Below are positions 23,567 through 48,090 of a DNA stretch of 64,000 nucleotides, one piece after another. The notes under the pieces were generated by a model. That model searched no databases, was not told the origin of the DNA, and was given only the letters and a program-made list of their open reading frames with translations. A program made the translations under genes and the position numbers. The stretch lies in contig NZ_CP009279.1 of assembly GCF_000758545.1 (NCBI RefSeq), positions 1,488,001 to 1,552,000 on the forward strand. The letters are read 5' to 3'. Position 1 is the stretch's first letter. Each line of letters begins with the position of its first letter. Origin of the DNA: Paenibacillus sp. FSL H7-0737. Lineage in GTDB: Bacteria > Bacillota > Bacilli > Paenibacillales > Paenibacillaceae.

Positions 23567-25144
23567 ATGGCGGAGAAACCTGTAATAGGCACAAAAACAA
23601 TGGTCGTCAGCCCTCATTATTTAGCTTCGGCTGCGGGTGCGCGCATTTTGGAAAAAGGGGGAAATGCCTTTGATGCGGCGGTGGCGGTTAGTGCGACGCT
23701 CGCTGTAGTCTACCCACATATGACGGGGCTTGGTGGGGATTCGTTCTGGTTGACCTATAGCACAGAAGAGGCGCGTGTCCGGGCGTATAACGGAAGTGGA
23801 CGGTCGGGTTACGGAGTTCGCAGAAGTTGCTATGCCGGTGAGGGAGCTATTCCGAGGCGGGGGATCCGCAGTGCCATCACCGTACCGGGGATGGTGGATA
23901 GCTGGGACGCCATGCTCAGCAAGTATGGCCGCTTAACGCTGGCAGAGGTGCTGGAGCCAGCCATCGGCTATGCTCAGAGTGGGTTTCCGCTGTCGCCGGA
24001 CCAGCGGAATAATACGCTGTTTGCTGGAACGGCGTTGTCGGCGGAGGCGTCCGCGATTTATATGCCGGGTGGAGTGGCTGTGTCTGCTGGATCGAGATTT
24101 CAGCAGACGCAGCTGGCGACAACCCTGAGGACGTTGGCTGCGGGTGGACGGGATGCTTTTTATAAGGGGAAGATTGCTGAAGATATTTGTGATTATATGC
24201 TGGCAGCTGGGGGCTATCTCACACGGGATGATTTTGCGGATCATCAGGGGGATTGGGTCGAGCCGATTCATGCGGAATATCATGGGCATAGGGTGTATCA
24301 AGTGCCGCCAAATTCTCAAGGGTTTACGGGGCTGATGAGTCTTAATATATTGGAGTATTTTAATTTCGGAGAAATCGAGCATGGCTCTTATGAATATTAC
24401 CACCTGCTTGTTGAAGCGCTGAAGCTGAGTTTTCGTGATCGGGATAGAGTGCTTACAGATCCGGATTTTAGTGCTATTCCTTTGGTGCAGTTGCTGAATA
24501 AGAACTATGCAGGGCAACTAGCCTCTACGATCTCGATGCAAAAAGCGGCACAGCTGACCAGTCAGCCTATTGGTAGTGATACTGCATATGCTGCGGTGGT
24601 GGATGAGGAGGGAAATGCGGTTTCCTTTATTCAGAGTCTGTATTTTGAGTTTGGCTCAGGAGTGGTTGCTGGGAATACAGGAATTCTGCTTCAGAATCGG
24701 GGTTCGTTTTTCTCGCTTGATCCGAACCATATCAATACGCTTGAACCGCATAAGCGCAGCTTCCACACACTGATGCCAGCCATGGCCTGCCGCGAGGGCA
24801 AACCTGCGATTCTATATGGTACGCAAGGTGGTGAAGGTCAGCCGCAGACTCAAACGTTGCTACTTACAAGGATGCTGCATTATGGGATGAATCCGCAAAC
24901 GTCTGTAAGTGAACCACGTTTTGTATGGGGGAGGACGTGGGGGGAGCCTACGCAGGAGCTGAAGGTAGAGGGACGGGTAGCGGATGAGGTGCTGGCAGAT
25001 TTGGCGGGAGCCGGTCATATTGTCCGGAAAGTGGAAGCATATGACGGGAGCGTGGGTCATGCTCACGCGATATCCATAGATGACAATGGATATCGTAGTG
25101 GGGGGACAGACCCGCGCTGCGATGGCGCGGCGATAGGTTGGTAG
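23567..25144 (+). CDS. Ggt-family hydrolase, HpxW-like (possible oxamate amidohydrolase)
   Basis: 525 residues of the gamma-glutamyltransferase Ntn-hydrolase family, normally self-cleaved before a catalytic Thr. T339 in IGSDTAYAAVVDEEGN is the likely nucleophile. GGNAFDAAVA, PHMTGLGGDSFW and GTQGGEGQPQTQ are conserved family motifs. There is no signal peptide, unlike periplasmic Ggt. Enterobacterial HpxW of the purine pathway is a cytoplasmic member that hydrolyses oxamate, and the position here next to an amidase and the puc locus supports that reading. A general gamma-glutamyl or acylase role cannot be excluded. I use ATG 23567 (MAEKP); ATG 23558 is too close to its site. Confidence 0.82.
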   Translation: MAEKPVIGTKTMVVSPHYLASAAGARILEKGGNAFDAAVAVSATLAVVYPHMTGLGGDSFWLTYSTEEARVRAYNGSGRSGYGVRRSCYAGEGAIPRRGIRSAITVPGMVDSWDAMLSKYGRLTLAEVLEPAIGYAQSGFPLSPDQRNNTLFAGTALSAEASAIYMPGGVAVSAGSRFQQTQLATTLRTLAAGGRDAFYKGKIAEDICDYMLAAGGYLTRDDFADHQGDWVEPIHAEYHGHRVYQVPPNSQGFTGLMSLNILEYFNFGEIEHGSYEYYHLLVEALKLSFRDRDRVLTDPDFSAIPLVQLLNKNYAGQLASTISMQKAAQLTSQPIGSDTAYAAVVDEEGNAVSFIQSLYFEFGSGVVAGNTGILLQNRGSFFSLDPNHINTLEPHKRSFHTLMPAMACREGKPAILYGTQGGEGQPQTQTLLLTRMLHYGMNPQTSVSEPRFVWGRTWGEPTQELKVEGRVADEVLADLAGAGHIVRKVEAYDGSVGHAHAISIDDNGYRSGGTDPRCDGAAIGW

Positions 25145-25259
25145 GGTGAGGTGAGAGTAGGTAGAATTTGGGTTGGAGGTGGGTTGCAGGCGACACCTTG
25201 AAGTGAAAGGCTTCTTAGAAAGGTGTAACAGAAAGCCCTAGTTTATTGGACATGAGATT

Positions 25260-25320
25260 TTAGAAGGATGATTAAAATCTTAGACGAGTTGATTAAGATC
25301 TTAGAAGGAATGTTGAGGGG
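25260..25320 (+). repeat. Short imperfect ~21-base tandem repeat
   Basis: Three units begin with TTAGA(A/C)G at 25260, 25280 and 25301, the first two running into ATTAA(A/G)ATC. Part of the 190-base gap before the amidase gene. A 25-codon frame (25268-25345) reads through it with an ILxxLIKILxG heptad pattern and overlaps the amidase start; I do not call it a gene. Confidence 0.4.
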
Positions 25321-25334
25321 AGGAGGAAGGGGAT

Positions 25335-26690
25335 ATGGTGGATAATCGGTATGGTGCATTTATCGATCCTCAGCTAACAGTCGGACGTTTAGGGAACGGG
25401 ATATTGAACGGACTGACCTTTGCGGTGAAAGATGTGTATGCGGTAGCAGGGCACAGTTCTTCTGCTGGTAATCCAGATTGGCTGTGGAGCCACAATCCGT
25501 CTACAGAACATGCGGCAGTAGTACGTCAGTTGCTCCGATCGGGAGCGACGCTTCGAGGAGCGACTCATACGGATGAGCTGATGTACAGTCTGGGTGGTGA
25601 GAACCATCATTATGGAACGCCCATAAATCCCCGTGCCGCAGGTTGTATCCCGGGTGGTTCTTCTAGTGGATCGGCAGTAGCGGTAGCTTCAGGTAGTGTT
25701 GATTTTGCGCTCGGAACAGATACAGGTGGTTCTATTCGAGTCCCTTCCGCCTATTGCGGAGTATATGGCTTTCGCCCGACGCATGGTGCTGTGAATATGG
25801 AAGGTGTGATCCCGTTATCACCGCAATTTGATACAGTAGGCTGGATGGCAGATCGTATGGGTGTGCTCCAGAAGGTTGGGGAGGTTTTACTTGGAAGTGG
25901 ACGCATGACTGAAAAGGTAATGATGAGCATAGATGGAAATTTAGAATTGAATATAGAGAACGGTAGGGAAAAAAATGAAGAGGAAGAATTGGAGAATAAT
26001 ATACAAAAGAACATAGAGGATCAGATACCAAAGAGCAAAGGAAATCATGTGGAATATAATTCTAGAAAGGATAAAGAGGATGATTCACAAAAGAAAATGG
26101 TGACTTTATTTGTCGCTACGGACTGTTGGGATTTGGTCGATCCAAAGGATGTGAGTGTTCTAGCGAATGGATTGAACCACTTGAGGACTGGTGCTGATCA
26201 TTTCTTCGAAACTGAAATAGCTCGAGAAGGTTTAAAAGTCTGGATGGATGTCTTTCGAGAGCTACAAGGCAATGAGATCTGGACAACCCATAGCGCCTGG
26301 ATTGAGAAGGTGAAACCAGTTTTTGGGCCTGATATTGCGGCCCGGTTCTCTTGGGCTGCTAACTTTGCTGGCAAGGACCACAGTATCGCTCTGAATAAAC
26401 GAGCGGAGATTTCTACTCAATTGCGCCAACTGCTGGGAGAAGATAATTGTCTTGTGATTCCGACAGTACCTGGTCCTGCTCCACTGCGTGGTGGGGGGTT
26501 GCGTCAATTGGAGGAGAACCGTAGTGGGGCGATGATGTTGAGTTGCATGGCTGGATTGGCAGGCCTGCCTCAAGTAACATTACCTATGCTCTCTACAAAT
26601 GGACTGCCGCTGGGATTGTCGGTTATCGCCGGACATGGTCAGGATCTTCGGCTACTCTCATGGGTGAAGGAGGTTTGGCGGCGGTCGTGA
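25335..26690 (+). CDS. Amidase signature family enzyme (HpxY/AtzE-like context)
   Basis: 451 residues. The Ser-cisSer-Lys triad is visible: K32 in FAVKDVY, Ser109/110 in PGGSSSGSAVAVASG and S133 in GTDTGGSIRVPS. Amidases hydrolyse C-N amide bonds. Pairing with an HpxW-like gene beside a puc cluster recalls enterobacterial hpxW-hpxXY, so a ureide or oxamate-type amide is a reasonable guess, not shown. Residues ~198-254 form a highly charged Asn/Glu/Lys-rich segment (e.g. NGREKNEEEELENN) that ordinary amidases lack and that is more AT-rich than its surroundings. ATG 25335 follows GGAGGAAGG. Confidence 0.82.
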   Translation: MVDNRYGAFIDPQLTVGRLGNGILNGLTFAVKDVYAVAGHSSSAGNPDWLWSHNPSTEHAAVVRQLLRSGATLRGATHTDELMYSLGGENHHYGTPINPRAAGCIPGGSSSGSAVAVASGSVDFALGTDTGGSIRVPSAYCGVYGFRPTHGAVNMEGVIPLSPQFDTVGWMADRMGVLQKVGEVLLGSGRMTEKVMMSIDGNLELNIENGREKNEEEELENNIQKNIEDQIPKSKGNHVEYNSRKDKEDDSQKKMVTLFVATDCWDLVDPKDVSVLANGLNHLRTGADHFFETEIAREGLKVWMDVFRELQGNEIWTTHSAWIEKVKPVFGPDIAARFSWAANFAGKDHSIALNKRAEISTQLRQLLGEDNCLVIPTVPGPAPLRGGGLRQLEENRSGAMMLSCMAGLAGLPQVTLPMLSTNGLPLGLSVIAGHGQDLRLLSWVKEVWRRS

Positions 26691-26859
26691 GATGACGGGA
26701 CTTGATGGGTTTTGAGATGATAGGTGAAATTGGTTTTTTAAAAAATGAACTCAATGTGATGAAGTAGGCTCAATAATGGTGTGTTAGAGTAAAAGAAAAA
26801 TTCAGTGCTCAAAAGTTGGCTAAGACCAGCGTTTCAGTAAACACCTCCATGCGAAGAAA

Positions 26860-27240: not shown

Positions 27241-27280
27241 CAAAAAGGTCAGCCACGACACACTCGCGTTTCATCTCAAC

Positions 27281-27313
27281 ACGCAAACAAAGCACCTTCC
27301 GTGAAGAAGGTGC
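27281..27313 (-). terminator. Terminator of the RidA gene
   Basis: GCACCTTC (27292-27299) pairs with GAAGGTGC (27306-27313). On the minus strand it is followed by TTTGTTTG. Confidence 0.7.
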
Positions 27314-27330
27314 CATGCCACGTCCGAGCT

Positions 27331-27714
27331 CTATTCTACGAATGCTTCGACTTCTATTTCTACTAACAATAGTGGATCAATAAGCGCTTTTACCTCTACC
27401 ATGGTTGCTACAGGCTGAATATCTTTGAAAAATTCGCCGTGTGCTTTGCCGACTTCTTCCCAGCGTGAGATGTCTGTCACGAACATTCTTGTTCTAATTA
27501 CATGCGACAAATCAGCATCTAGCTGGTTTAGCGCTTTTTCGATGGTATGTAGAATGAATTTCGTCTGCGCGTATGGATCTCCTACACCGACTATTTCCCC
27601 GTCTTGCATGGCTGTTGTTCCTGCGACTTCGATACGATTGCCGATTCGGATGGCGCGAGAATATCCAACCACCGACTCCCAGGGTGAACCCGTAAACACT
27701 TGCTTTTTACTCAA
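27331..27714 (-). CDS. RidA/YjgF family protein
   Basis: 127 residues of the trimeric RidA family, which hydrolyses reactive enamine/imine intermediates. It starts MSKKQVFTGSPWESVVGYSR and shows GDPYAQTKFILHTIEKAL and a conserved catalytic-type Arg in HVIRTRMFVTD. The start is TTG 27714, preceded by GGAGGGG. It is the only minus-strand gene in the purine region. Family members recur in ureide and pyrimidine catabolic loci, so a role in clearing labile intermediates is plausible. Confidence 0.88.
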   Translation of the reverse strand: MSKKQVFTGSPWESVVGYSRAIRIGNRIEVAGTTAMQDGEIVGVGDPYAQTKFILHTIEKALNQLDADLSHVIRTRMFVTDISRWEEVGKAHGEFFKDIQPVATMVEVKALIDPLLLVEIEVEAFVE

Positions 27715-27816
27715 AAGATCCCCTCCAAATCCATCCTAATATTGTCCGATCTAATTATACTACTCACACAAGTGATGTGAACTAAAGATTAATGATTAAT
27801 CAGTTATGTTCATTTA

Positions 27817-27908
27817 ATGTTATTTTAACTAACATAAAAACCATTAAATTTTAATTTCACTCTATCCAAGGAGGTTCATTTTAATTATAATGTTACATAA
27901 AATAACAT
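27817..27908. promoter_or_regulatory. Pair of identical dyads upstream of pucR
   Basis: ATGTTA-N7-TAACAT occurs at 27817-27835 and again at 27890-27908, with starts 73 bases apart (about seven helical turns). The second is extended to ATAATGTTA-N7-TAACATTAT (27887-27911) and overlaps a TATAAT. They lie between divergent ridA and pucR. An operator for PucR or another regulator is inferred; they do not match the PucR box published for B. subtilis. Confidence 0.6.
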
Positions 27909-27953
27909 TATGAATTAGAAATGGTTCAATTGATCCTAAAAAGGAGGGATGGC

Positions 27954-29528
27954 ATGCATCTTACGGTTGAAGAAGCGTTGTCCATTTATCCTTTGTCCGA
28001 GGCGAAGCTTATCGCGGGGTCCAAGGGGAAACATCGAATTGTGAAATCGATCAATGTGATGGACGCACCTGATATTTCGGATTGGATTAAAGAAGGCGAG
28101 ATGCTGCTAACGACAGCCTATTTAATCAAGGACAATCTGGAGGATGCCTCTGCTTTGCTGCAAACACTGAATCGAAGGGGCTCATCGGCCTTAGGTATTA
28201 AGCTGGGACGATTTTGGGATAAAGTACCGGAGCAGCTAATCGCAGAAGCGGAGAGCCTTAACTTCCCCTTAATCCAGTTACCGTTCCAGTTCACTTTTTC
28301 GGATCAGATGAATGGCCTGTTTCGCGCCGAGCTTAGCCGGAGCACTCATGTTTTGCAGAGCATAATGGAGAAGCAGAAAAAGCTGATGCAATTTGCCTTG
28401 CGATCTGTCCGCAGCCGTCCACTGTTTGACTCGGTGTCTGAAGTGATTGGCCATTCACTTGTGGTGGTTAGCGCACGCGGGGATGTAATCTATAACAATT
28501 CTGAATATCAGACCTCACAGCTGCTGGAGGGGTGGCCCTGGCAGAATCGTAATCAACGTTTTCGTGTAGAAGATCGTACAGGTTATCGCACACCACTAAT
28601 ACAAGGAGAAAAGTGCTCGGGATATTTATTGTATTGTTCCATCGACCCTTTATTGCTCCCGGTGGAAGAGAGCTTGTTCGTTCAGGGTGCTGAACTTATT
28701 TCATATCATATTCACTCAGGATACGAGGATTATTTTGAACAGGCAGAACAAAGGGAGTTCAGTGGATTGCTGAGACGTTGTCTAAATGGTAACTTATCTT
28801 ACTCCGATTTAGTACAGTCTGCTGTAAAGCTGGAGATAGAGCTGCTTCAATCGCCATTCTGTCTCTTATTAACCGATATTGCTACGACGAGTGAAGAACG
28901 CCAAAGTGAGCTGCTTAGATTAAAAGAAGAATACACTGAACACCCCGTACTGCGGGATTTAAAGGCCATTCATGTGATTGTAGACCAAGGATTATTGTCC
29001 ATCTATCCGGCAGCTCTTCAGAGTCCTGAGCAATTTCGTGATGTAATCCAGGCTTGTTTTGACAACCTGAAGTTTGACAAGGGGTATTATCCACGAGCTG
29101 CGATAAGTAGTTGTAAATTGAAGCCGGATGGGCTGAAGGAGGCTTTTGCGGAGGTGAAGGAATGTATGGGGATGCTTCAGTTTGAGGGAGTGCATGGGAA
29201 TGTTGTGCATTATCGGCAGCTTGAGCTTTCCTTGCTTCTTGGGCAAATCCCGACAGAGGTCATGGAGAAATATTGCAACGGAACGCTTAGAGGACTGCTT
29301 AGTCGTGAGCCGGAGTATGTGCGAGAAATGCTGCGGACGCTGGAGGTTTATCTAGAGAACGATGGGCATGTCAATGAGACAGCCAAAAAGTTGTTTATTC
29401 ATCGGAACACGGCTACCTACCGGATCGAGAAGCTCAGTGAGCTCTTGGATGTCGATTTTAAAAAAATAAATGATCTAATGAGGCTGAAGTTAGTGTTCAT
29501 GTTTCGGAGAATGCTTGGGCGGGACTAA
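27954..29528 (+). CDS. pucR: PucR-family transcriptional regulator of purine catabolism
   Basis: 524 residues. The N-terminal PucR ligand domain (TVEEALSIYPLSEAKLIAGS, ~1-125) contains MDAPDISDWIKEGEMLLTTA. A middle region follows, then a C-terminal CdaR/PucR-type helix-turn-helix (NETAKKLFIHRNTATYRIEK). In B. subtilis PucR activates the puc genes in response to allantoin-type effectors; heading this cluster, the same role is likely. ATG 27954 has AAGGAGGG; the upstream in-frame start lacks one. Tandem dyads precede it. Confidence 0.93.
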   Translation: MHLTVEEALSIYPLSEAKLIAGSKGKHRIVKSINVMDAPDISDWIKEGEMLLTTAYLIKDNLEDASALLQTLNRRGSSALGIKLGRFWDKVPEQLIAEAESLNFPLIQLPFQFTFSDQMNGLFRAELSRSTHVLQSIMEKQKKLMQFALRSVRSRPLFDSVSEVIGHSLVVVSARGDVIYNNSEYQTSQLLEGWPWQNRNQRFRVEDRTGYRTPLIQGEKCSGYLLYCSIDPLLLPVEESLFVQGAELISYHIHSGYEDYFEQAEQREFSGLLRRCLNGNLSYSDLVQSAVKLEIELLQSPFCLLLTDIATTSEERQSELLRLKEEYTEHPVLRDLKAIHVIVDQGLLSIYPAALQSPEQFRDVIQACFDNLKFDKGYYPRAAISSCKLKPDGLKEAFAEVKECMGMLQFEGVHGNVVHYRQLELSLLLGQIPTEVMEKYCNGTLRGLLSREPEYVREMLRTLEVYLENDGHVNETAKKLFIHRNTATYRIEKLSELLDVDFKKINDLMRLKLVFMFRRMLGRD

Positions 29529-29566: not shown

Positions 29567-30691
29567 GTGAATACACATGAGATCGCAACGCATATTCAAA
29601 CCCATAAGGCGCCTGCGGTGCTGGCAACACTGATTGAGGTAGAGGGACACTCGTATCGTAAACCCGGGGCAGTGATGTTGTTTTTTGAAGGGGGCACGAT
29701 TGGGAGTCTGAGTCCAGGTTGTGTGGAAAGCGATCTGGAGTTACGTACCTCTGAGATATGGGAACGAGGGCTGCCCGAGATTGTGGAATACAATATGTTG
29801 TCTTCGGATGATCTGTCCTGGGGTGAGACTGTCGGCTGTGGAGGCAAAATCAAAGTGGTGCTTGAACCCGTGCAGGGTCAGCTCTACAAGCTTTTGGTGC
29901 AGGCGAGTGACAGATTGGCTAGGGGAGAGAAGCTAATTCTGTTCCGCGAAGCAGTGGAGAACGGTTTTGCCTATAAGCTGGAGCTGGATCCAGACAATGA
30001 ACTGCCGCAGAGCAAGAAATATCCGAAATTATCCCACTCGGCAAAAGAAAACCTAGCAGCAGGTCGCTTTATGGCCGCTCCAGCAGAATTGACAGCATTT
30101 CATGCGTCTTTCGTGCCTAAACCGCGGCTTGTGATTTTTGGTGGTGGGCTTGATGTGGTTCCGATTGCGGAACTTGCTGACAGAGTTGGCTTTCGGGTTG
30201 CGGTTGCGGATTGGCGCGAAGGAAGCTTGCACAATAAGTTTCCTCGAGCTGAACAAGTAATTTGTTCCCCTATGGAGGTTGTTCAGCGATTAGGCGTAGC
30301 TCGAGAGGATTATGTATTGATTTGCAGTCATCAACTTGGGCGGGATAGACAGTTCCTGGAGAGTGTGATTCCGCTTGCTCCTCTATATATAGGGATTATG
30401 GGTTCGAAGGCGCGGATAGCTCTTTTACTGGAAGGGCTTGAGGCTCCTGCATCTTTGCATGCACCTGTAGGGTTGCCGATTGGAGGAGAAGGTCCGGAGG
30501 AGATTGCGGTCAGTATTATAGCAGAAATTATTCAAATTAGAAGGGTGGGCTCACGAGAGCTGCCCAAAGGAGCGGATAGTATTGAAGGTAGCAGGCATAT
30601 ATTTGGCAGCGGGGCAGAGCAGGCGGATGGGTGTGTCCAAGGTTTCACTGAAATTGTCGCAGGAGGTCTCACTCGGGAGCGTCGCGCTTAG
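29567..30691 (+). CDS. pucA: XdhC/CoxF-type maturation factor for xanthine dehydrogenase
   Basis: Binds molybdenum cofactor, supports sulfuration and hands it to the dehydrogenase. The N-terminal XdhC_CoxI domain has GSLSPGCVESDL and GETVGCGGKIKV. The C-terminal Rossmann-type XdhC_C domain has LVIFGGGLDVVPIAELA and GIMGSKAR. The start is GTG 29567, behind GGAGGAGGGAG. At 374 residues it is about 45 longer than B. subtilis PucA; the extra tail (after IIQIRRVGSRELPKG) overlaps the next gene by 110 bases and looks unconserved. Confidence 0.9.
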   Translation: MNTHEIATHIQTHKAPAVLATLIEVEGHSYRKPGAVMLFFEGGTIGSLSPGCVESDLELRTSEIWERGLPEIVEYNMLSSDDLSWGETVGCGGKIKVVLEPVQGQLYKLLVQASDRLARGEKLILFREAVENGFAYKLELDPDNELPQSKKYPKLSHSAKENLAAGRFMAAPAELTAFHASFVPKPRLVIFGGGLDVVPIAELADRVGFRVAVADWREGSLHNKFPRAEQVICSPMEVVQRLGVAREDYVLICSHQLGRDRQFLESVIPLAPLYIGIMGSKARIALLLEGLEAPASLHAPVGLPIGGEGPEEIAVSIIAEIIQIRRVGSRELPKGADSIEGSRHIFGSGAEQADGCVQGFTEIVAGGLTRERRA

Positions 30692-31205
30692 TGAATTGGA
30701 TCGTTGCAATCTAGAACCGCTAATCGTGGTAGTGCGTGCGGATGACAACTTGGAATGGCTGCCACCCGCGATTGAACCGCAAGGCTCCAGACGCACCGAA
30801 ACTTGTTTAACCGCACATCTAGGATTGTCTTTTTCACTGCGCTGCGGCCTTAATGCGGTATTACCTTTACAGCCCGATGCAGTAGTTGTGGCGCTTGCGG
30901 ATCAGCCATTTATTACTACAGCATTAGTGAACCGTCTAATACAAACGTTTGAACAATCTCCGGAGATGGATTATGTCGCTAGCGTCAGCAATGGGTCGGC
31001 TATGCCTCCGGCTTTGTTCTCGAAGACGTTGTTTCCAGCACTACAGGGATTAGATGGAGATCGAGGAGCGGCGGGGATATTGCGTTCACCTGATTATAAG
31101 GGGATTGTTCTGGAATCTGAGTCTGCCCATTATTTCATGGACGCAGATACAAGAGAAGATTTTGGTGAGATTCAGGAGCAATGGATTCTGAGAAATGGAA
31201 AGTGA
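30582..31205 (+). CDS. pucB: MobA-like molybdenum cofactor nucleotidyltransferase
   Basis: 207 residues of the MocA/MobA NTP-transferase family: AGIYLAAGQSRRMGVSK is the nucleotide-binding loop, VVVALADQPF the metal-binding strand, and GDRGAAGILR follows. It transfers CMP or GMP to molybdopterin for the xanthine dehydrogenase in this cluster. It starts at TTG 30582 inside pucA, in another frame, with AAAGGAG nine bases upstream. Coupling to pucA translation is likely. Confidence 0.9.
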   Translation: MKVAGIYLAAGQSRRMGVSKVSLKLSQEVSLGSVALSELDRCNLEPLIVVVRADDNLEWLPPAIEPQGSRRTETCLTAHLGLSFSLRCGLNAVLPLQPDAVVVALADQPFITTALVNRLIQTFEQSPEMDYVASVSNGSAMPPALFSKTLFPALQGLDGDRGAAGILRSPDYKGIVLESESAHYFMDADTREDFGEIQEQWILRNGK

Positions 31206-31273: not shown

Positions 31274-31447
31274 ACGCAACTCACCTTCCGAAAACCAATT
31301 AGTGCATTACACACAAAAAAAGTTCTGATTCTTATATTCCTATACAAACGTATGTTATATAAATTTACGCCAAGGCCACCTCTAAGTATAGTAGAAGTAC
31401 ATTAATGGTTGCAGCCATGATGAGAGATGATTTGGAGGAGGAGAATT

Positions 31448-32608
31448 ATGAAAAAAAGGGGTCAGTTCATAACATCTTGTCTTGCATTAATGGTTCTAAT
31501 GACGGTGGCTTTGGTGGGGTGTGGCAGCAATAATAATACTTCTACAAATGCAACGGAGGCACCAGCGACAACTACAGCGGCAACAGAGGCAACTGCAACA
31601 ACAGAACCGGCTGCAAAGAAACCGACGGTTGCTTTTGTTTATATCGGACCTCCAGGGGATGGCGGCTACACGTACCAACATGATCAAGGACGGCTGTATA
31701 TGGAGAAGGAGCTGGGGATTAAAGCTGACTTTGTAGAAAATGTCCCTGAAAGTGCTGACGCCGAACGAATCATCACAGAGCTTGCGCAATCACACGACAT
31801 CGTGTTTACAACGAGCTTCGGATATATGGATTTTACATTAAATGTAGCGGGCAAATTTCCCAACGTGAAGTTCCTGCATGCTTCGGGTTACAAAACCGCA
31901 GAGAACATGGGAACCTACTTCGGGAAAAACTATCAGGCCAGCTATCTGAGCGGCATTGCGGCAGGAAAAATGACCAAAAACAATCAGCTGGGTTATGTGG
32001 GCGCTTTTCCGATCAGCGAAGTGATTTATAACTTGAATGCTTACACCCTTGGGGCACAAAGTGTCAATCCTGATGTAAAGGTGAATGTGGTGTGGACGAA
32101 TACATGGTATGACCCGACGACTGAACGTCAAGCGGCAATCAGCTTGCTGGATAAGGGTGCGGATGTGCTTTTGGCCTATCAGGATTCACCTGCAACCCTG
32201 CAGGCTGCTGCTGAACGAGGGGCTTTTGCCGGGGGAAATGACTCGGATATGAGCAAATACGCTCCGGACAATTATTTGACGAACCCGGTATGGAATTGGG
32301 GGCCGTATTACGTAAAAGCTGTGCAGGCAGTTATGGATGGAACCTGGAAGAGCGAGCAATATTCCGGTGATATGGCTGACGGTATGGTGGAGCTGGCTCC
32401 TTTCGGGAACAAGATCCCAGATGATGTGAAAAAGCTTGTCGAAGACGCCAAAGCCAAAATTATCAGTGGTGAGCTTGAGGTTTTCACAGGTCCGATCTCA
32501 GATAATCAAGGGAATGTGAAGGTTCAGGAGGGTCAGAAGCTGACCTTGGAGGAAGTGTTGGGCATGAACTGGCTCGTAAAAGGTGTGGAAGGAACTATCC
32601 CGCAATAA
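31448..32608 (+). CDS. BMP-family substrate-binding lipoprotein of a purine-type ABC importer
   Basis: 386 residues. A lipoprotein signal (KKRGQF...VALVGC, cysteine in GCGSNNN) is followed by a Thr/Ala-rich linker and the BMP/PBP1 fold (VAFVYIGPPGDGGYTYQHDQ, DVLLAYQDSPATLQAA). BMP proteins bind nucleosides or related purines. In this locus the ligand may be a purine base, urate or allantoin. ATG 31448 follows GGAGGAGGAG. It begins a four-gene ABC importer; a hairpin after it may raise its level over the other subunits. Confidence 0.9.
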   Translation: MKKRGQFITSCLALMVLMTVALVGCGSNNNTSTNATEAPATTTAATEATATTEPAAKKPTVAFVYIGPPGDGGYTYQHDQGRLYMEKELGIKADFVENVPESADAERIITELAQSHDIVFTTSFGYMDFTLNVAGKFPNVKFLHASGYKTAENMGTYFGKNYQASYLSGIAAGKMTKNNQLGYVGAFPISEVIYNLNAYTLGAQSVNPDVKVNVVWTNTWYDPTTERQAAISLLDKGADVLLAYQDSPATLQAAAERGAFAGGNDSDMSKYAPDNYLTNPVWNWGPYYVKAVQAVMDGTWKSEQYSGDMADGMVELAPFGNKIPDDVKKLVEDAKAKIISGELEVFTGPISDNQGNVKVQEGQKLTLEEVLGMNWLVKGVEGTIPQ

Positions 32609-32717: not shown

Positions 32718-34250
32718 ATGCGGGGAACTTCAGTTGAAATGCGGGGGATTGTGAAAAAATTCGGCTCGGTAACCGCCAGTGATCAAGTCGACTTTTCGGC
32801 AAATGCGGGTGAGATTCATGCGTTGCTTGGGGAGAATGGGGCCGGGAAGAGCACGGTGATGAGCATGCTGTCAGGGGTGTACAGAGCAGATGAAGGAGAA
32901 ATCTTCATTCATGGGAAAGGTGCTCAGATCCGTTCTCCTAAAGATGCTGCGCAGCTGGGTGTAGGTATGGTGTTTCAGAACTTTAGGCTGGTGCAAAGCC
33001 TCACAGCAGCAGAAAATATCGTGCTTGGCGAAAAGTCGTCTTTCTGGCGCGGCCGTAAGTGGATGAAGAACAAATGCGAGGAGATAGAGGCATTAGCGGA
33101 ACGGTTTGGACTGAATTTCCCGGTGGATCGCCCGATCTGGCAGTTGTCCGTGGGTGAGCAGCAGCGTGTTGAAATCGTTAAGACGCTGTATCGCGGGGCT
33201 GACATTATTATTCTGGATGAACCAACCTCTGTATTGACCCCGGGAGAGGTGGAACAGCTATTTGAAACGCTGCGGGTCATGAAGCAGGCAGGAAAAACGG
33301 TCATTATGACTACTCATAAAATGAAAGAGGTTATGGCGTCCTCCGATCGGATTTCCGTCATGCGCAAAGGGAAAATGATCGCCACACTGACCACTGCAGA
33401 TACAGATGAACTGGAGCTGGCTCGTCTGATGGTGGGCAAGGAAGTAACCATCACCCGTCAAGAACGGGAAGCCACTGAAGGGGATTCTTTATTAGAAGTG
33501 AAAGATGTGGACGTATATGCCGATCACGGGCGAAAAGCACTGGATCACTTCTCTCTGAACGTATGTAAAGGGGAGATTGTAGGCGTAGCTGGGGTAGCTG
33601 GCAACGGGCAAAAGGAACTGGCTGAAGTGTTAACAGGTCTTAGAGGCTGGAAAAGTGGTGAAATCACGTTTGATGGAAAGACGGTGGAATCGGCTTCGGT
33701 TAGAGGGGCAATTGATTCAGGAATCTCCCACGTGCCGGAGAACCGGATGAAGAGCGGTTTAGCTGGACGCCTCGGATCGGTGGATAATCTTTTGTTTAAG
33801 TCTTACCGCTCAGAGGAGCACTCCAAATTTGGTTTCTTGAAGTCCGCGAAGAACCGTTTGTGGTCACAGGAGCTGGTCCAGCGCTTTAACGTCAAGACAC
33901 CTGAGCTCGAGACGCCAGTACAACAGTTGTCAGGTGGTAATCAGCAGAAGCTGCTCTTTGCACGTGAGATCAGTCATCGGCCGAAGCTGATGGTCGCCGT
34001 TCATCCGACACAAGGGCTGGATGTAGGTGCCACGGCTGGTGTTCACGACCTTCTTATGGAGCTGCGTGGTTCAGGTAGTGGCGTGTTGTTAATTTCGGAG
34101 GATTTAGATGAATTGCTTCAGTTGTCCGACCGGATTCTAGTGATCTATAACGGCTCAATTATTGGTGAGAGTACACATGAGGAAGCGAATCGAGAGAGCA
34201 TCGGACTACTAATGGCTGGTATTCATAATAGAGAGGAGAGCGCCGTATGA
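32718..34250 (+). CDS. ABC importer ATPase with two nucleotide-binding domains
   Basis: 510 residues of the sugar/nucleoside (RbsA/NupO-like) type. The first domain has GENGAGKST and DEPTSVLTP; the second has the degenerate Walker A GVAGNGQKE, LSGGNQQKLLFAREI and HPTQGLDVGA, typical of the poorly hydrolytic second half. ATG 32718 follows GGAGGGG; the frame is open 75 bases further upstream through the hairpin. Its stop overlaps the permease start by four bases. Confidence 0.93.
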   Translation: MRGTSVEMRGIVKKFGSVTASDQVDFSANAGEIHALLGENGAGKSTVMSMLSGVYRADEGEIFIHGKGAQIRSPKDAAQLGVGMVFQNFRLVQSLTAAENIVLGEKSSFWRGRKWMKNKCEEIEALAERFGLNFPVDRPIWQLSVGEQQRVEIVKTLYRGADIIILDEPTSVLTPGEVEQLFETLRVMKQAGKTVIMTTHKMKEVMASSDRISVMRKGKMIATLTTADTDELELARLMVGKEVTITRQEREATEGDSLLEVKDVDVYADHGRKALDHFSLNVCKGEIVGVAGVAGNGQKELAEVLTGLRGWKSGEITFDGKTVESASVRGAIDSGISHVPENRMKSGLAGRLGSVDNLLFKSYRSEEHSKFGFLKSAKNRLWSQELVQRFNVKTPELETPVQQLSGGNQQKLLFAREISHRPKLMVAVHPTQGLDVGATAGVHDLLMELRGSGSGVLLISEDLDELLQLSDRILVIYNGSIIGESTHEEANRESIGLLMAGIHNREESAV

Positions 34251-39609: not shown

Positions 39610-40132
39610 TTCAGATCCCAATCTAGATGAAGATAACCTTGCCCCCTTATCGTCTGAGGAAGCTTTTGCAGAAGAGAGGTTCACCTTTAATTGCAATCTC
39701 AATGGTAAAGCGATATCCACGGAGATTCCACCCTCCCGCCGGCTTTTAAATGTCATACGTGAAGATTTGGAGCTGACCGGTACAAAACGTTCTTGTGAGA
39801 TTGGCCGCTGCGGGGCATGTATGGTGCTGGTGGATGGACGTCCAGTGAATTCATGTCTGGTCATGGCCTATCAATGCTCAGGTGCGGAAATTACAACGAT
39901 TGAGGGTCTTAGTGAAGTAGGCCTGCATCCTGTTCAGAGGGCTTTTTTAGAAGAGGGGGGGTTCCAATGCGGTTATTGTACACCAGGGATGGTTATCTCG
40001 GTAGTTGCTCTGCTGGAAAAGAACCCGCATCCTACTCAGGCTGAAGTGGAAGAAGCTTTATCCGGTAACATTTGTCGCTGTACGGGGTACGGTGGCATTT
40101 TACGAGCTGTTAACAAAGCTATTGGAGGTTGA
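39596..40132 (+). CDS. pucE: Xanthine dehydrogenase 2Fe-2S subunit
   Basis: 178 residues with two [2Fe-2S] clusters. The plant-type cluster is bound by C-x4-C-x2-C in CEIGRCGACMVLVDG with a later Cys; the helical-domain cluster by CGYCTPGM and CRCTGYGGI. It has a ~35-residue acidic N-terminal extension before the ferredoxin domain. It starts inside pucD and is followed after four bases by the OHCU decarboxylase gene. Confidence 0.94.
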   Translation: MSSHNSDPNLDEDNLAPLSSEEAFAEERFTFNCNLNGKAISTEIPPSRRLLNVIREDLELTGTKRSCEIGRCGACMVLVDGRPVNSCLVMAYQCSGAEITTIEGLSEVGLHPVQRAFLEEGGFQCGYCTPGMVISVVALLEKNPHPTQAEVEEALSGNICRCTGYGGILRAVNKAIGG

Positions 40133-40136
40133 GTGG

Positions 40137-40649
40137 ATGGTCGTTTCTGAAGGCAGGTTTACGTTGGAAGAGATAAATGCCATGAGTATAACGGATTTTG
40201 TGAAGCATCTAGGCGGCATTTTTGAACATTCACCGTGGGTAGCAGAGGAGGCTTATAAGCAGATTCCATTCCATTCTTTAGAGCATTTGCATAGCACAAT
40301 GATGCAGACCGTACTGAGTGCTGACCGGAGCCGAATGGAGGGACTATTAAAAGCTCACCCGGATTTGGCGACTAGGCTTCAAGTTACGGCTTTGTCTGCC
40401 TCAGAGCAGCAGGGAGCTGGACTGGATCGGCTAACAACGGAAGAGTTCAATCTATTAAATGATCTGAATCGAAAGTATACGGACAAATTTCATTTCCCTT
40501 TTATTCTAGCTGTTCGTGGCAAAAACAAAGATGACATTATCGGCGCCATTGGAGTGCGAGTTGAGCGTTCCCCTCAGGAGGAATGGATTCAAGCCTTTTC
40601 TGAAGTCGGTACAATTACGAGATTTCGCCTAAGTGATTTAATTATTTAA
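40137..40649 (+). CDS. uraD: OHCU decarboxylase
   Basis: 170 residues. Decarboxylates 2-oxo-4-hydroxy-4-carboxy-5-ureidoimidazoline to S-allantoin, the last step of urate opening. Family marks are FVKHLGGIFEHSPWVAEEAY, the acidic/His segment around the active site, LTTEEFNLLNDLNRKYTDKF and FPFILAVRGK. In B. subtilis this domain is fused to uricase in PucL; here it is a separate gene. ATG 40137 has GGAGG eight bases upstream; the longer frame back to 40005 is just the pucE shadow. Confidence 0.92.
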   Translation: MVVSEGRFTLEEINAMSITDFVKHLGGIFEHSPWVAEEAYKQIPFHSLEHLHSTMMQTVLSADRSRMEGLLKAHPDLATRLQVTALSASEQQGAGLDRLTTEEFNLLNDLNRKYTDKFHFPFILAVRGKNKDDIIGAIGVRVERSPQEEWIQAFSEVGTITRFRLSDLII

Positions 40650-44675: not shown

Positions 44676-44695
44676 AAAGAGTTCGTCGAACTTTA

Positions 44696-44790: not shown

Positions 44791-44808
44791 CTTGAAGGGA
44801 GGATCATC

Positions 44809-46041
44809 ATGAAGCGTTACGAAGATTTGTCGCCATCCCTGCGCTGCATTATGACTCCGGGTCCGGTGGAGGTTGATCCGCGTGTCCTGCGGGCGATGTC
44901 TTTTCCGGTGCTGGGTCAGTTTGATCCAGAGTTCACCCAGATGATGAATGAAACGATGGAGATGCTGCGGGAGCTGTTCGCTACCCGAAATGCATGGGCT
45001 TACCCTATAGATGGGACCTCTCGCGCTGGTATTGAGGCGGTGATGGTCAGCTTAATCCTGCCGGGGGAACGTGTGCTGATTCCGATCTTTGGCCGCTTCG
45101 GACACCTGCTTCATGAGATTGCCGAACGTTGTGGCGCTGAGGTGTTCGTTCTGGAAAAGCCATGGGGAAGTGTGTTTGAACCGGAGGAAGTGATAGCGGC
45201 TATCGAGACTTTTAAGCCAAATGTGGTAGCGATGGTGCATGGTGAGACCTCTACAGGACGGGTGCAGCCACTCGCGGAAATTGGCAGAGCCTGCCGCCGA
45301 ATGGATGCTCTTTTCATAGTTGACGCAGTTGCAACTCTTGGGGGCATTCCTGTCGAAACGGATGCTTGGATGCTGGATGCGGTCGTAGGAGGTACACAGA
45401 AATGCCTGTCCGTCCCCTCCGGTATGGCACCAATAACATATAATGACCGCGCTGAGGCTAAGCTTATGTCCCGTAAACGAGTAGAACGTGGGATTAGAAT
45501 CAGCGATGTTCAGCCTGGTGAGTTGTCTTTTGTCCGCAGCAACTATTTCGATCTTGGCATGCTTCAGGATTATTGGAGCCCGCAACGTCTCAATCATCAT
45601 ACAGAGATGACCTCTATGCTCTATGCACTTCGGGAGGGCTTGCGACTTGCGCTTGAAGAAGGAATGGATGCCAGATTCGCCAGACATCAGCTCCATGAAA
45701 AGGCACTTATAGCTGGATTAACAGCGATGGGGCTTGAACTTTACGGGGAGCCCTCCTGCAAACTTACCGTTGTTACCTGTGTGCTGATTCCTGAGGGCCT
45801 AGACGGGGAATCTGTACGCACGCTGCTGCTGGAGCGGTTCGGCATTGAAATTGCCAGCTCCTTTGGACCTCTGAAAGGAAAGATTTGGCGCATTGGCACG
45901 ATGGGCTTTAGCTGCCGTACGAATAATGTGCTGCGTTTGCTTGGAGCTTTGGAAGCAGCGTTGCTGCGACACGGATTTGAAGTTTTTTACGGACTTGGTG
46001 TTCAAGCGGCACTTGACGTATATGAGGAAAACGTAAGATAA
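44809..46041 (+). CDS. pucG: (S)-ureidoglycine-glyoxylate aminotransferase
   Basis: 410 residues, PLP fold type I class V. Transfers the amino group of ureidoglycine to glyoxylate, giving oxalurate and glycine. The PLP Lys lies in GGTQKCLSVPSGMAP, and MTPGPVEVDPRVLRAM at the N-terminus is typical. Placement directly after allantoate amidohydrolase supports PucG over serine-glyoxylate or alanine-glyoxylate aminotransferases, which look similar. ATG 44809 follows GGGAGGATC. A terminator lies 75 bases downstream. Confidence 0.93.
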   Translation: MKRYEDLSPSLRCIMTPGPVEVDPRVLRAMSFPVLGQFDPEFTQMMNETMEMLRELFATRNAWAYPIDGTSRAGIEAVMVSLILPGERVLIPIFGRFGHLLHEIAERCGAEVFVLEKPWGSVFEPEEVIAAIETFKPNVVAMVHGETSTGRVQPLAEIGRACRRMDALFIVDAVATLGGIPVETDAWMLDAVVGGTQKCLSVPSGMAPITYNDRAEAKLMSRKRVERGIRISDVQPGELSFVRSNYFDLGMLQDYWSPQRLNHHTEMTSMLYALREGLRLALEEGMDARFARHQLHEKALIAGLTAMGLELYGEPSCKLTVVTCVLIPEGLDGESVRTLLLERFGIEIASSFGPLKGKIWRIGTMGFSCRTNNVLRLLGALEAALLRHGFEVFYGLGVQAALDVYEENVR

Positions 46042-46115
46042 TCGTTGGAATAGATGCTGGCGGGTGAGTTCATACCAGGGGCATGTCCGGAGTGTTGGAC
46101 AATCTTTGGATCAAG

Positions 46116-46155
46116 AAAACGGCTATCATCTACAGGGATGACGGAGCCGTTTTTT
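46116..46155 (+). terminator. Terminator after pucG
   Basis: AAAACGGCT (46116-46124) pairs with AGCCGTTTT (46145-46153), with inner ATCATC/GATGAC pairing, and ends in a T-run. It closes the main puc transcript and separates ade. The remaining bases 46156-46278 show no gene. Confidence 0.85.
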
Positions 46156-46278
46156 CGTACAATATCAGATTTGCCAACTATGATATCAACACAGCCGATG
46201 GTTAAGCAATCCTCTATTATTATGAATCTATTCACTACATCAAGAACGCACTTGGATACTAACGGGGGAGAGATGAAA

Positions 46279-48090
46279 ATGACAACTTTTACAAGAAAGC
46301 CTTTAGCAGATTGTGTACCTGAGCTTGTGGCTACGGCAAGAGGAGATAAACCGGCAACACTAGTAATTACAGGTGGAAAGCTGGTTAATGTATGCTCTGG
46401 TGAAATTTTAGAAGGAATGTCTGTTGGTATACAAGGTGGACGTATCGCTTATGTTGGTAAAGATGTGACACATATGATTGGTGAAGGAACGCAGGTCATT
46501 GAGGCGAACGGTAAGTATATAGCTCCGGGACTACTCGATGGCCATTGTCATATTGAGAGCACACAGCTGACCGTTACTGAATTCTCCCGTGCGGTTCTGC
46601 CGCTGGGTACAACAGGTGGTTTCTTTGATGCTCATGAGATTGCTAATGTATTTGGGCTGAAGGGGATTCAATTGATGCTCGATGAGATGCGGGGAACACC
46701 GTTAGCGGCTTACATGCAGGTGGCTTCTTGTGTGCCTGCGGCAGGTGCGGAATTCGAGACAACGGGAGCTTCTATTGGACCAGAAGAAGTGGCAGAAGCC
46801 TTTACTTGGGGACCCGATGTGATTGCGCTGGGTGAAGTGATGAATTTTCCCGGCGTTGTTTATGGCGATGAGAAAATGCTTGGCGAAATTCAAGCTACGC
46901 TGCGGGCAGGCAGATTTGTAGATGGTCATTTCACATGGCCTTCCAGCGACTGGAGACTGCCCGTGTATGCTGCGGCAGGGGTGACTGGCGATCATGAGTG
47001 TGTGACGGCAGACGATGTGATTGAGCGCGTTAGACTGGGGATGTATGCCAAAATGCGCCGGGGTTCCGCTTGGCATGATGTGGCTAAAACAATTACGGCC
47101 CATACAGAACACGGCATAGATACACGCCGAATGATGCTGGTAACGGATGACCGTAGTTCGGAATCCTTACGAGATGAAGGGCATATGAATTTCGTCCTGC
47201 GTGATGCTATTGCTCAAGGTGTTAAGCCTATAACAGCTATCCAAATGGCCACCATTAATACTGCTGAACGCTTTGGTTTAGCGCGGGATATCGGATCTAT
47301 TACTCCGGGTTCTTTTGCAGATATCATCCTTTTAGACGGGAATTTGGCGGATATTAATGTAGTGCTGACAATTGCCGCAGGTGTAGTAGTTGCGGAGAAC
47401 GGAGTAATGACGGCAGAGCTTGCAAAATTCTCTTATCCGGAGGAAGTGTTGGCTTCGGTTCATTTGCCACAGCGTCCTACTTCAGAAGATTTCATCATTG
47501 CTGCTCCAATTCAAACAGGTGAACTTACTACAAGAGTTATTAAAGTAAGAGAAAATCATGTGGAGACTATTGTGCGTATGGTTTCGATACCTGTAGTGGA
47601 GGGGCAACTGGATGTAAATGCTATAGAAGGTTTGTGCAAAATCGCAGTGCTCGAACGTCATAAAGGTACAGGCAATAAATCAGTGGCCGTTGTCGAAGGC
47701 ATTGGATTTAAAGAGCCGGCTGCCATTGCAATGACGGTTGCTCACGATAGTCATAATGTACTTGTTATCGGTAATGATGATGAGTTAATGGCTAAAGCTG
47801 CAAATGCGGTGGCGGATGCCCAGGGTGGTGTTTGCATGATCACATCCAATGGAGAAACATTATTCCCGTTGGCTATTGCAGGTCTAATGTCCACGGAACC
47901 CTTCGAAATTGCTGCTGCAAAATCAGCTGCGATCAGCAAAGCGCTATATGATGCTGGCTGTACTTTGAACTACGCATTTATGACTTTATCGCTGCTTGCA
48001 TTGGCGGTTATCCCGACGCTACGCATCACGGATAAAGGACTTGTTCGGATCTCGCCTGAAGGAATACAGTTAGTGCCATTGTTTGTTTAA
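46279..48090 (+). CDS. ade: Adenine deaminase
   Basis: 603 residues. Deaminates adenine to hypoxanthine, feeding the xanthine dehydrogenase of this locus. The amidohydrolase core has GLLDGHCHIEST, AHEIANVFG, GEVMNFPGV and VTDDRSSESL, and the ~200-residue C-terminal Ade domain is complete. The frame is open 225 bases upstream through the terminator, which cannot be coding for this protein; ATG 46279 has GGGGGAG eight bases before it (ATG 46273 is also possible). Probably transcribed separately from puc. Confidence 0.94.
   Translation: MTTFTRKPLADCVPELVATARGDKPATLVITGGKLVNVCSGEILEGMSVGIQGGRIAYVGKDVTHMIGEGTQVIEANGKYIAPGLLDGHCHIESTQLTVTEFSRAVLPLGTTGGFFDAHEIANVFGLKGIQLMLDEMRGTPLAAYMQVASCVPAAGAEFETTGASIGPEEVAEAFTWGPDVIALGEVMNFPGVVYGDEKMLGEIQATLRAGRFVDGHFTWPSSDWRLPVYAAAGVTGDHECVTADDVIERVRLGMYAKMRRGSAWHDVAKTITAHTEHGIDTRRMMLVTDDRSSESLRDEGHMNFVLRDAIAQGVKPITAIQMATINTAERFGLARDIGSITPGSFADIILLDGNLADINVVLTIAAGVVVAENGVMTAELAKFSYPEEVLASVHLPQRPTSEDFIIAAPIQTGELTTRVIKVRENHVETIVRMVSIPVVEGQLDVNAIEGLCKIAVLERHKGTGNKSVAVVEGIGFKEPAAIAMTVAHDSHNVLVIGNDDELMAKAANAVADAQGGVCMITSNGETLFPLAIAGLMSTEPFEIAAAKSAAISKALYDAGCTLNYAFMTLSLLALAVIPTLRITDKGLVRISPEGIQLVPLFV

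What the first reader, a model, noticed from the sequence alone, without database searches (positions are those of the whole stretch)
23567..48090. Near-complete purine-to-oxalurate locus with HpxW-like and amidase genes attached
The run holds adenine deaminase, the whole xanthine dehydrogenase with its maturation factors, urate to allantoin in three enzymes, and allantoin to oxalurate plus glycine, with a dedicated BMP importer and PucR. What is missing is oxalurate carbamoyltransferase. An HpxW-like Ggt protein and an amidase at the 5' edge resemble the hpxW-hpxXY end of the Klebsiella pathway, so this Firmicute locus may combine Bacillus puc with an enterobacterial-style terminal branch.
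Basis: partly seen in the sequence, partly recalled or inferred. Interest (0 to 1): 0.7.

Follow-up and report, generated by a model that had tools for sequence, protein, structure and literature searches.

The report
Purine-breakdown cluster with oxalate-making tail
This soil-bacterium gene cluster breaks purines down to oxalurate and carries at its front two more enzymes that most likely finish the job to oxalate and ammonia, a step whose genes are not settled in Bacillus-type bacteria.

Summary
The locus is real: purine entry, xanthine dehydrogenase with maturation factors, urate to allantoin, allantoin to oxalurate, BMP importer, PucR. The genome is close to Paenibacillus odorifer. The oxalurate carbamoyltransferase is not absent: an AllH-F-G/carbamate-kinase operon lies 0.3 Mb upstream. 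The Ggt-like protein is HpxW-like: the residues that bind gamma-glutamyl groups are replaced, largely as in Klebsiella HpxW, and it falls in the HpxW clade. The amidase is not HpxY/AtzE but PRK08310. The pair is a conserved module: among 100 genus genomes, HpxW-like is in 64 of 66 with PucG and 0 of 34 without; amidase 63 of 66 and 0 of 34; AllG 7 of 66 and 8 of 34. Elsewhere in Bacilli an HpxW-like gene can directly follow PucG, or AllFGHK stand there instead. In 12 named genomes an HpxW-like gene directly precedes oxalate decarboxylase, pointing to oxalate as product. Best reading: oxalurate to oxamate (amidase), oxamate to oxalate (HpxW-like), under GlnR. No activity was tested, and some PucG loci have only one of the two. 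A CHR transporter pair often adjoins HpxW-like genes; oxalate export is the boldest open idea. A YwrD-HpxW link to purine degradation is already in print.

The parts
22242..22784 (-). CHR (chromate transporter family) short-chain gene 1
   Evidence: PF02417 144.2 bits
22781..23398 (-). CHR short-chain gene 2, diverging from the HpxW-like gene
   Evidence: PF02417 142.6 bits
23514..23530 (.). exact GlnR/TnrA box TGTNAN7TNACA, 44 bp before the HpxW-like ATG
23558..25144 (+). HpxW-like Ntn hydrolase (Ggt family); proposed oxamate amidohydrolase
   Evidence: TIGR00066 530.2 bits; small chain nearest 5hft HpxW; residues; tree
25335..26690 (+). amidase-signature protein of the PRK08310 family; proposed oxalurate amidohydrolase; variable low-confidence insert at about residues 190-251
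   Evidence: 454.9 bits, cut-off 391; alignment with K32, S109, S133 invariant; model
27331..27714 (-). Rid-family protein
   Evidence: TIGR00004 52.4 bits, under its cut-off of 106.25
27818..27834 (.). exact GlnR/TnrA box before pucR
27891..27907 (.). exact GlnR/TnrA box before pucR
27921..29528 (+). PucR-type regulator
   Evidence: PF07905 and PF13556
29537..30691 (+). XdhC/PucA-like maturation factor
   Evidence: NF045664 132.3 bits, under cut-off
30582..31205 (+). PucB/MocA-like maturation factor (frame overlaps the previous one; true start probably later)
   Evidence: TIGR03202 167.3 bits, under cut-off
31427..32608 (+). BMP-family substrate-binding protein
   Evidence: PF02608 192.9 bits
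32643..34250 (+). ABC transporter ATPase
34247..35389 (+). ABC transporter permease
35393..36322 (+). ABC transporter permease
36381..37280 (+). xanthine dehydrogenase FAD subunit (PucC-like)
37315..39609 (+). xanthine dehydrogenase molybdenum subunit (PucD)
   Evidence: 829.5 bits, cut-off 783.65
39596..40132 (+). xanthine dehydrogenase iron-sulfur subunit (PucE-like)
40005..40649 (+). OHCU decarboxylase (UraD); the match begins at residue 61, so the true start is later
   Evidence: TIGR03164 179 bits
40676..41635 (+). urate oxidase
   Evidence: TIGR03383 245.5 bits
41635..42009 (+). hydroxyisourate hydrolase
   Evidence: TIGR02962 119.1 bits
42043..43437 (+). allantoinase
   Evidence: TIGR03178 551.2 bits
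43434..44675 (+). allantoate deiminase (PucF/AllC)
   Evidence: NF006768 534.5 bits, cut-off 532
44809..46041 (+). PucG, ureidoglycine-glyoxylate aminotransferase (makes oxalurate and glycine)
   Evidence: 602.7 bits to 3isl
46054..48090 (+). adenine deaminase
   Evidence: TIGR01178 471.4 bits, cut-off 472.5

Best explanation
The two genes at the 5' edge are the terminal branch of this purine pathway. PucG makes oxalurate. The PRK08310 amidase removes its carbamoyl group by hydrolysis, giving oxamate plus carbamate (NH3 + CO2). The HpxW-like Ntn hydrolase cuts oxamate to oxalate plus NH3. GlnR acts through boxes before the HpxW-like gene and pucR, so the module serves nitrogen recovery and leaves oxalate for decarboxylation or export. 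Shown: gene identities, family placement, conserved linkage, co-occurrence, active-site residues, boxes. Inferred: both reactions, their order, and the regulation.
For: (1) Nearest solved small chain is K. pneumoniae HpxW 5hft: 184.6 bits, against 129.6 for 2nlz and under 70 for true GGTs; in a 34-row small-chain tree both lie in one clade, SH-aLRT 93. (2) E. coli GGT residues that hold the gamma-glutamyl group (R114, N411, Q430, D433, S462, S463; roles from PMC6769717, passages) align, read by eye, with S80, Y362, R381, F384, H403, T404; 5hft has Y, R, A, H, T at the five small-chain places. In 102 distinct relatives T342 is kept in 102, R381 in 102, Y362 in 99. (3) 100 genus genomes: HpxW-like (60% identity or more) in 64 of 66 PucG genomes and 0 of 34 others; amidase in 63 of 66 and 0 of 34; AllG in 7 of 66 and 8 of 34. 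Amidase within 2 kb in 57 of 64, downstream on the same strand in 57 of 57; PucG within 30 kb in 56 of 64, downstream on the same strand in 56 of 56. (4) Outside the genus an HpxW-like gene follows PucG by 33-45 bp in 11 genomes; of 39 PucG genomes of the class sample 21 have HpxW-like within 25 kb (8 of them with the amidase), 3 the amidase alone, 4 AllG, 11 none. (5) Oxalate decarboxylase lies directly beside an HpxW-like gene in 3 of 117 Bacilli loci and in 12 of 80 loci of a scan seeded with those three. (6) HpxW-like genes also lie near AllFGHK: next to it in L222 and 16 kb away in G305, as expected for an enzyme that consumes oxamate. (7) The PucG-linked amidases of six other loci all pass the PRK08310 cut-off. 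(8) GlnR boxes; GlnR binds the pucR promoter of P. polymyxa (PMC9948412, passages) and TnrA sites are reported at B. subtilis ywrD (PMC3412718, passages).
Against: No activity was tested. The protein passes NCBI's gamma-glutamyltransferase model (530.2, cut-off 357.85), and Foldseek ranks whole-chain 2nlz first and 5hft_A 40th, though 5hft is split into two chains. Eight of the 11 genomes whose HpxW-like gene abuts PucG have no PRK08310 relative at E <= 1e-45, so the amidase is not always needed or is replaced. Five fetched PucG loci have the amidase but no HpxW-like gene (L042, L045, L103, L104, L105). 11 of 39 PucG genomes have none of the three modules nearby. This genome also has AllFGH and a carbamate kinase. 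Co-occurrence of linked genes within one genus is not independent evidence. The HpxW-clade support of 93 is under the tool's star level.
Confidence: 0.58

Rival explanations
1. The HpxW-like enzyme cuts oxalurate itself at its oxalyl-amide bond, giving oxalate plus urea, and the amidase acts on oxamate or on another ureide.
For: An HpxW-like gene abuts PucG in 11 genomes, 8 of which have no PRK08310 relative at E <= 1e-45. The bond would be the same oxalyl amide as in oxamate (chemistry, inference). The amidase model's neighbours include malonamidase E2, which takes a substrate like oxamate.
Against: In 5 fetched loci the amidase accompanies PucG without an HpxW-like gene, as an enzyme acting directly on oxalurate would. 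HpxW is known as an oxamate enzyme (PMC5270733, passage). HpxW-like genes occur beside AllFGHK, which delivers oxamate (L222).
Confidence: 0.18
2. In this strain oxalurate goes to the AllFGH transcarbamylase and carbamate kinase encoded 0.3 Mb away; the HpxW-like enzyme only clears the resulting oxamate, and the amidase has a side role.
For: The AllH-F-G/carbamate-kinase operon has its own PucR-type regulator and an allantoin-permease-like gene.
Against: AllG is in only 7 of 66 PucG genomes of the genus, while the amidase is in 63 of 66. The operon's 20 kb stretch has no exact GlnR box.
Confidence: 0.13
3. The two genes are ordinary peptide or amide hydrolases that merely sit beside the purine cluster.
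For: Both belong to large, promiscuous superfamilies; NCBI's general GGT model is passed. HpxW-like relatives at 36-40% identity lie mostly outside purine loci (1 of 24 with any puc gene in the stretch).
Against: 0 of 34 PucG-less genus genomes have either gene (HpxW-like at 60% identity or more). Linkage with altered gene order outside the genus: L036, L038, L187. Lost gamma-glutamyl residues.
Confidence: 0.08

Closest known systems
Klebsiella HpxW (oxamate amidohydrolase, PDB 5hft)
   Same: small chain with N-terminal Thr, the same kind of replaced substrate-site residues, same clade in the small-chain tree
   Different: no hpxXYZ beside it; Bacilli branch; 5hft is nearest to proteobacterial sequences (68% identity)
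B. subtilis YwrD
   Same: Danchin 2016 (PMC5270733, passages) notes that YwrD resembles HpxW and co-evolves with most xanthine-degradation enzymes; TnrA sites at ywrD in PMC3412718 (passages)
   Different: no amidase partner is named in those passages; the YwrD sequence was not fetched, so whether it falls in the window's clade or in the 36-40% clade near 2nlz was not tested
Klebsiella HpxY / AtzE amidohydrolases
   Same: amidase-signature family; HpxY is called oxalurate amidohydrolase in PMC12625717 (passage)
   Different: window amidase is PRK08310, far under the AtzE cut-offs, with no small partner subunit found
E. coli AllFGH oxamic transcarbamylase with AllK (PMC11326118, passages)
   Same: takes oxalurate to oxamate; homologues exist in this genome
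   Different: phosphorolytic and energy-conserving; separate locus; 7 of 66 PucG genomes of the genus
B. subtilis puc pathway
   Same: PucR, PucA-E-like proteins, urate to allantoin, allantoinase, allantoate deiminase, PucG
   Different: one long cluster with BMP importer and adenine deaminase, and terminal hydrolases attached

Membership tests
HpxW oxamate amidohydrolase | Thr nucleophile at the start of the small chain | tested here: met
   T342 aligns with residue 1 of 5hft_B; kept in 102 of 102 distinct relatives
HpxW oxamate amidohydrolase | gamma-glutamyl-binding residues replaced as in 5hft | tested here: met
   (equivalences read by eye; at the D433 place the window has F, 5hft A)
HpxW oxamate amidohydrolase | groups with 5hft apart from GGTs and 2nlz | tested here: met
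   23-row clade with SH-aLRT 93, not starred
HpxW oxamate amidohydrolase | operon with hpxX, hpxY, hpxZ (context in PMC3560190, passages) | tested here: not met
HpxW oxamate amidohydrolase | hydrolyses oxamate to oxalate and ammonia | not testable with these tools
   indirect only: oxalate decarboxylase beside HpxW-like genes
HpxY / AtzE amidase | passes an AtzE-family model | tested here: not met
   187.5 against 461 and 179.5 against 425.75
HpxY / AtzE amidase | small HpxX/AtzG-type partner nearby | tested here: not met
   no such domain in nine small frames at 24860-27739; rest of the genome not searched
PRK08310 amidase (NF006169) | curated cut-off of 391 bits | tested here: met
   454.9; seven linked relatives 439-502
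Gamma-glutamyltransferase | NCBIfam TIGR00066 cut-off | tested here: met
   530.2 against 357.85: a superfamily-wide match
Gamma-glutamyltransferase | residues that hold the gamma-glutamyl amino and carboxylate groups | tested here: not met
   all six E. coli positions differ
AllFGH transcarbamylase with carbamate kinase, own genome | all four genes together | tested here: met
   AllG 295.8 bits, AllH 99, AllF/FdrA 503.9 (cut-off 433), carbamate kinase 509.4 (cut-off 266); activity not tested
GlnR/TnrA regulon | TGTNAN7TNACA in the promoter | tested here: met
   three exact sites; pucR 40 of 40 genus loci, HpxW-like 9 of 41 exact and 11 of 41 with one mismatch; binding not tested

The most novel reading that the evidence does not exclude
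Bacilli have a purine-to-oxalate route whose end product has its own carrier: the CHR 'chromate transporter' pair that diverges from the HpxW-like gene exports oxalate, so oxalate would be a natural substrate of this branch of a family known mainly for chromate. In lineages where oxalate decarboxylase is joined to the HpxW-like gene, oxalate is decarboxylated instead.
Probability: 0.2. Interest if true: 0.72.

Novelty: new variant of a known kind. Interest (0 to 1): 0.52.

Why it matters
PucG of Bacillus-type bacteria makes oxalurate, and its onward fate in Bacilli is not settled in the papers seen here. The linkage gives a concrete two-enzyme answer, names the amidase family to test, and shows that genomes use alternative terminal modules: HpxW-like with or without the amidase, or AllFGHK. 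It would correct many 'gamma-glutamyltransferase' labels on HpxW-like genes, link purine breakdown to oxalate and oxalate decarboxylase, and give a first guess at a natural substrate for some CHR transporters.

Tried and rejected
Rejected: (a) HpxY orthology of the amidase. (b) 'Carbamoyltransferase missing' as a property of the organism. (c) A PucR-box scan with a consensus recalled from memory: six sites with up to one mismatch, 2.65 expected, the single exact one at 48533-48545, none before pucR or the HpxW-like gene. (d) Exact GlnR box before the HpxW-like gene as a genus-wide rule: 5 of 30 loci, 9 of 41. (e) Riboswitch: none at the gathering threshold in the window; the one match is a tRNA. 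(f) The frame 26893-27366 as a gene: no family; it lies in a 51-bp tandem repeat. (g) The genes after HpxW-like in six Oxalobacteraceae loci as HpxY: the two scanned (L201, L202) are cytosine-deaminase-like. (h) Foldseek with the whole HpxW-like chain cannot decide, because 5hft is split.

Rows dropped before counts: 14 HpxW-like matches under 60% identity in the genus (nine genomes have only such a copy, none of them with PucG), 19 of 58 PucG matches (50% identity or less) and 23 of 63 HpxW-like matches (40% or less; one at 39% in G305 was kept). Three of the 64 genus copies are contig-end fragments (G063, G022, G099).

Print searches: 'chromate transporter' + ywrD: 0 papers; 'oxamate' + 'oxalate decarboxylase': 0; 'chromate transporter' / 'oxalate' / 'CHR superfamily', at least two: 6, none with oxalate; ywrD + oxamate: 1, Danchin. 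These cover the held library only. Hicks and Ealick 2016 was not held and is known here through its citation in PMC5270733.
Full report
WHAT IS THERE. The window lies at G000:C1:1488001-1552000 of a single-contig genome of 6,765,883 bases; nearest proteins carry names such as Paenibacillus odorifer and Paenibacillus sp.. Cut-offs passed and not passed are given under the observation check. The Ggt-like gene 23558-25144 and the amidase 25335-26690 precede pucR (27921-29528). Between amidase and pucR lie a 51-bp tandem repeat (26858-27237) and a minus-strand Rid-family gene. A pair of CHR-family genes runs away from the Ggt-like gene (22242-23398).

THE 'MISSING' STEP IS ELSEWHERE IN THE GENOME. 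A search of the own genome with the AllG family finds one match, at 1189869-1190519. The 20-kb stretch around it (L003) holds a PucR-type regulator on the minus strand, then AllH, AllF/FdrA, AllG, an ankyrin/TPR protein, a carbamate kinase, an allantoin-permease-like protein and a deaminase-family protein. AllFGH is the oxamic transcarbamylase of E. coli (PMC11326118, passages). The same paper says that urease-positive Klebsiella pneumoniae lacks it.

THE GGT-LIKE PROTEIN IS HPXW-LIKE. It passes the general GGT model (530.2 bits, cut-off 357.85). Against solved structures its small chain scores 184.6 bits on Klebsiella HpxW 5hft, 129.6 on 2nlz, 98.5 on 2i3o and under 70 on GGTs; for the whole protein, 5hft's two chains add up to 360 bits against 326 for 2nlz (my sum). 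The residues that bind the gamma-glutamyl group in E. coli GGT (PMC6769717, passages) are all replaced: R114, N411, Q430, D433, S462, S463 align with S80, Y362, R381, F384, H403, T404 (read by eye; positions set). At the small-chain places 5hft has Y, R, A, H, T. Of 102 distinct relatives, T342 is kept in 102, R381 in 102, T404 in 101, Y362 in 99 and H403 in 99; the D433 place is F in 70, N in 17 and D in 1. In a small-chain tree of 34 rows, 5hft lies in one 23-row clade (SH-aLRT 93, not starred) with the window protein, the PucG-linked and the decarboxylase-linked proteins, while 2nlz, 2i3o and the single representative of the 36-40% relatives lie outside. The AlphaFold model has mean pLDDT 89.3; Foldseek puts 2nlz first and 5hft_A 40th, 5hft being split.

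THE AMIDASE IS A DIFFERENT FAMILY FROM HPXY. It scores 454.9 on PRK08310 (cut-off 391), 187.5 on AtzE PRK09201 (cut-off 461). PucG-linked amidases in L036, L038, L043, L045, L103 and L105, and the one in L187 (Heyndrickxia ginsengihumi, beside hydroxyisourate hydrolase, UraD and allantoate deiminase), pass the same cut-off (439-502). K32, S109 and S133 are invariant in an 11-row alignment; that they form the Ser-Ser-Lys triad is recalled, not tested. The model (mean pLDDT 79.5) has an amidase-signature fold, with GatA and malonamidase E2 among the top hits. No HpxX/HpxZ-like domain appears in nine small frames around it.

THE PAIR GOES WITH PUCG. Of 100 genus genomes (own one included) PucG is in 66. 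HpxW-like at 60% identity or more is in 64 of these 66 and 0 of the other 34; the amidase in 63 of 66 and 0 of 34; AllG in 7 of 66 and 8 of 34. The amidase lies within 2 kb of the HpxW-like gene in 57 of 64, downstream on the same strand in all 57; PucG within 30 kb in 56 of 64, downstream on the same strand in all 56. Seven of the ten exceptions have the partner on another contig or absent in a fragmented assembly; G064, G047 and G021 are rearranged. These genes are linked, so this is not independent evidence of function.

OUTSIDE THE GENUS THE MODULE IS REBUILT. In 220 class genomes PucG matches 58; 19 at 50% identity or less were dropped, leaving 39. Of these 39, 21 have an HpxW-like gene within 25 kb (8 with the amidase), 3 the amidase alone, 4 AllG, 11 none, and none has both HpxW-like and AllG. 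In 11 genomes an HpxW-like gene of 51-53% identity follows PucG by 33-45 bp on the same strand; 8 of these have no amidase relative at E <= 1e-45. In L099-L102 AllFGHK-type genes stand beside PucG. In L042, L045, L103, L104 and L105 the amidase is there without an HpxW-like gene. Of 15 class genomes with the amidase, 14 have PucG. So neither gene is strictly bound to the other, which keeps the first rival alive.

OXALATE AS PRODUCT. Oxalate decarboxylase lies directly beside an HpxW-like gene in 3 of 117 fetched Bacilli loci: L075, L149, L150. A scan seeded with these three proteins gave 80 named loci; 12 have the same pair, in Staphylococcus simulans, S. nepalensis, Rummeliibacillus stabekisii, three Paenibacillus and six Sporosarcina. 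The seed makes 12 of 80 no frequency estimate, and the decarboxylase-linked proteins are one clade. The gene before the pair, scanned in L165, L166, L167 and L171, is an NCS2 permease passing PRK11412, a family also found between PucG and the amidase in L042 and L045. The own genome has an oxalate decarboxylase at 5948589-5949683; 67 of 100 genus genomes pass its cut-off.

REGULATION. The window holds three exact TGTNAN7TNACA sites (0.88 expected; 5 of 100 shuffles reach three): one 44 bp before the HpxW-like ATG, two before pucR. In the genus an exact site lies within 300 bp before pucR in 40 of 40 loci, before the HpxW-like gene in 9 of 41, with one mismatch in 11 more; shuffles give 0.9% exact and 15.9% with one mismatch. 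The AllFGH stretch has none. GlnR binds the pucR promoter in P. polymyxa (PMC9948412, passages); TnrA sites at ywrD are cited in PMC3412718 (passages).

CHR PAIR. CHR genes lie within three genes of the HpxW-like gene in 26 of 44 genus loci and 26 of 58 Bacilli rows thinned at 85% identity; by identity class 29 of 51, 2 of 27 and 11 of 24. The label needs 13 changes on a 113-row tree. One search finds CHR in 161 of 220 class genomes, mostly two to six matches each, so chance adjacency should be under 1% (my arithmetic). Against a tie to oxalate: 18 of 44 genus loci lack the pair, and 11 cases lie in the 36-40% class, whose sampled member groups with 2nlz and of which only 1 of 24 has a puc gene in the stretch. 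Oxalate export is therefore a guess worth testing, no more.

KNOWN AND NEW. Danchin 2016 already noted that YwrD resembles HpxW and co-evolves with xanthine degradation (PMC5270733, passages). New here, within the searches named under Tried and rejected: the physical linkage of an HpxW-like gene and a PRK08310 amidase with PucG, their alternation with AllFGHK, the HpxW-like/oxalate-decarboxylase pair, and the CHR neighbourhood.

Noticed in passing
26858-27237: Intergenic array of 51-bp tandem repeats between amidase and pucR.
   Followed up: partly
27331-27714 (minus): Rid-family gene between amidase and pucR; seen in 6 of 44 genus loci annotated.
   Followed up: partly
L003:10951-12111: Ankyrin/TPR-repeat protein encoded between AllG and carbamate kinase in the own AllFGH operon.
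   Followed up: no
25335-26690, residues about 190-251: Amidase carries a low-confidence, charged insert that most relatives lack.
   Followed up: partly
L103:13465-14337, L105:14397-15266: Fumarylacetoacetate-hydrolase-family gene overlapping the end of the PucG-linked amidase where no HpxW-like gene is present; may be an alternative next step.
   Followed up: partly
L034:16019-17341, L035:12486-13817: 5'-deoxyadenosine-deaminase-family gene between the HpxW-like gene and the xanthine dehydrogenase genes in PucG-HpxW loci.
   Followed up: partly
L165-L168, L170-L172, L174, L175: Three-gene order permease-size frame, HpxW-like, oxalate decarboxylase outside any purine locus; the first gene is an NCS2 permease in the four scanned.
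   Followed up: yes
L222:8028-16129: HpxW-like gene facing AllH, AllG, carbamate kinase and AllF in a Burkholderiales assembly.
   Followed up: partly
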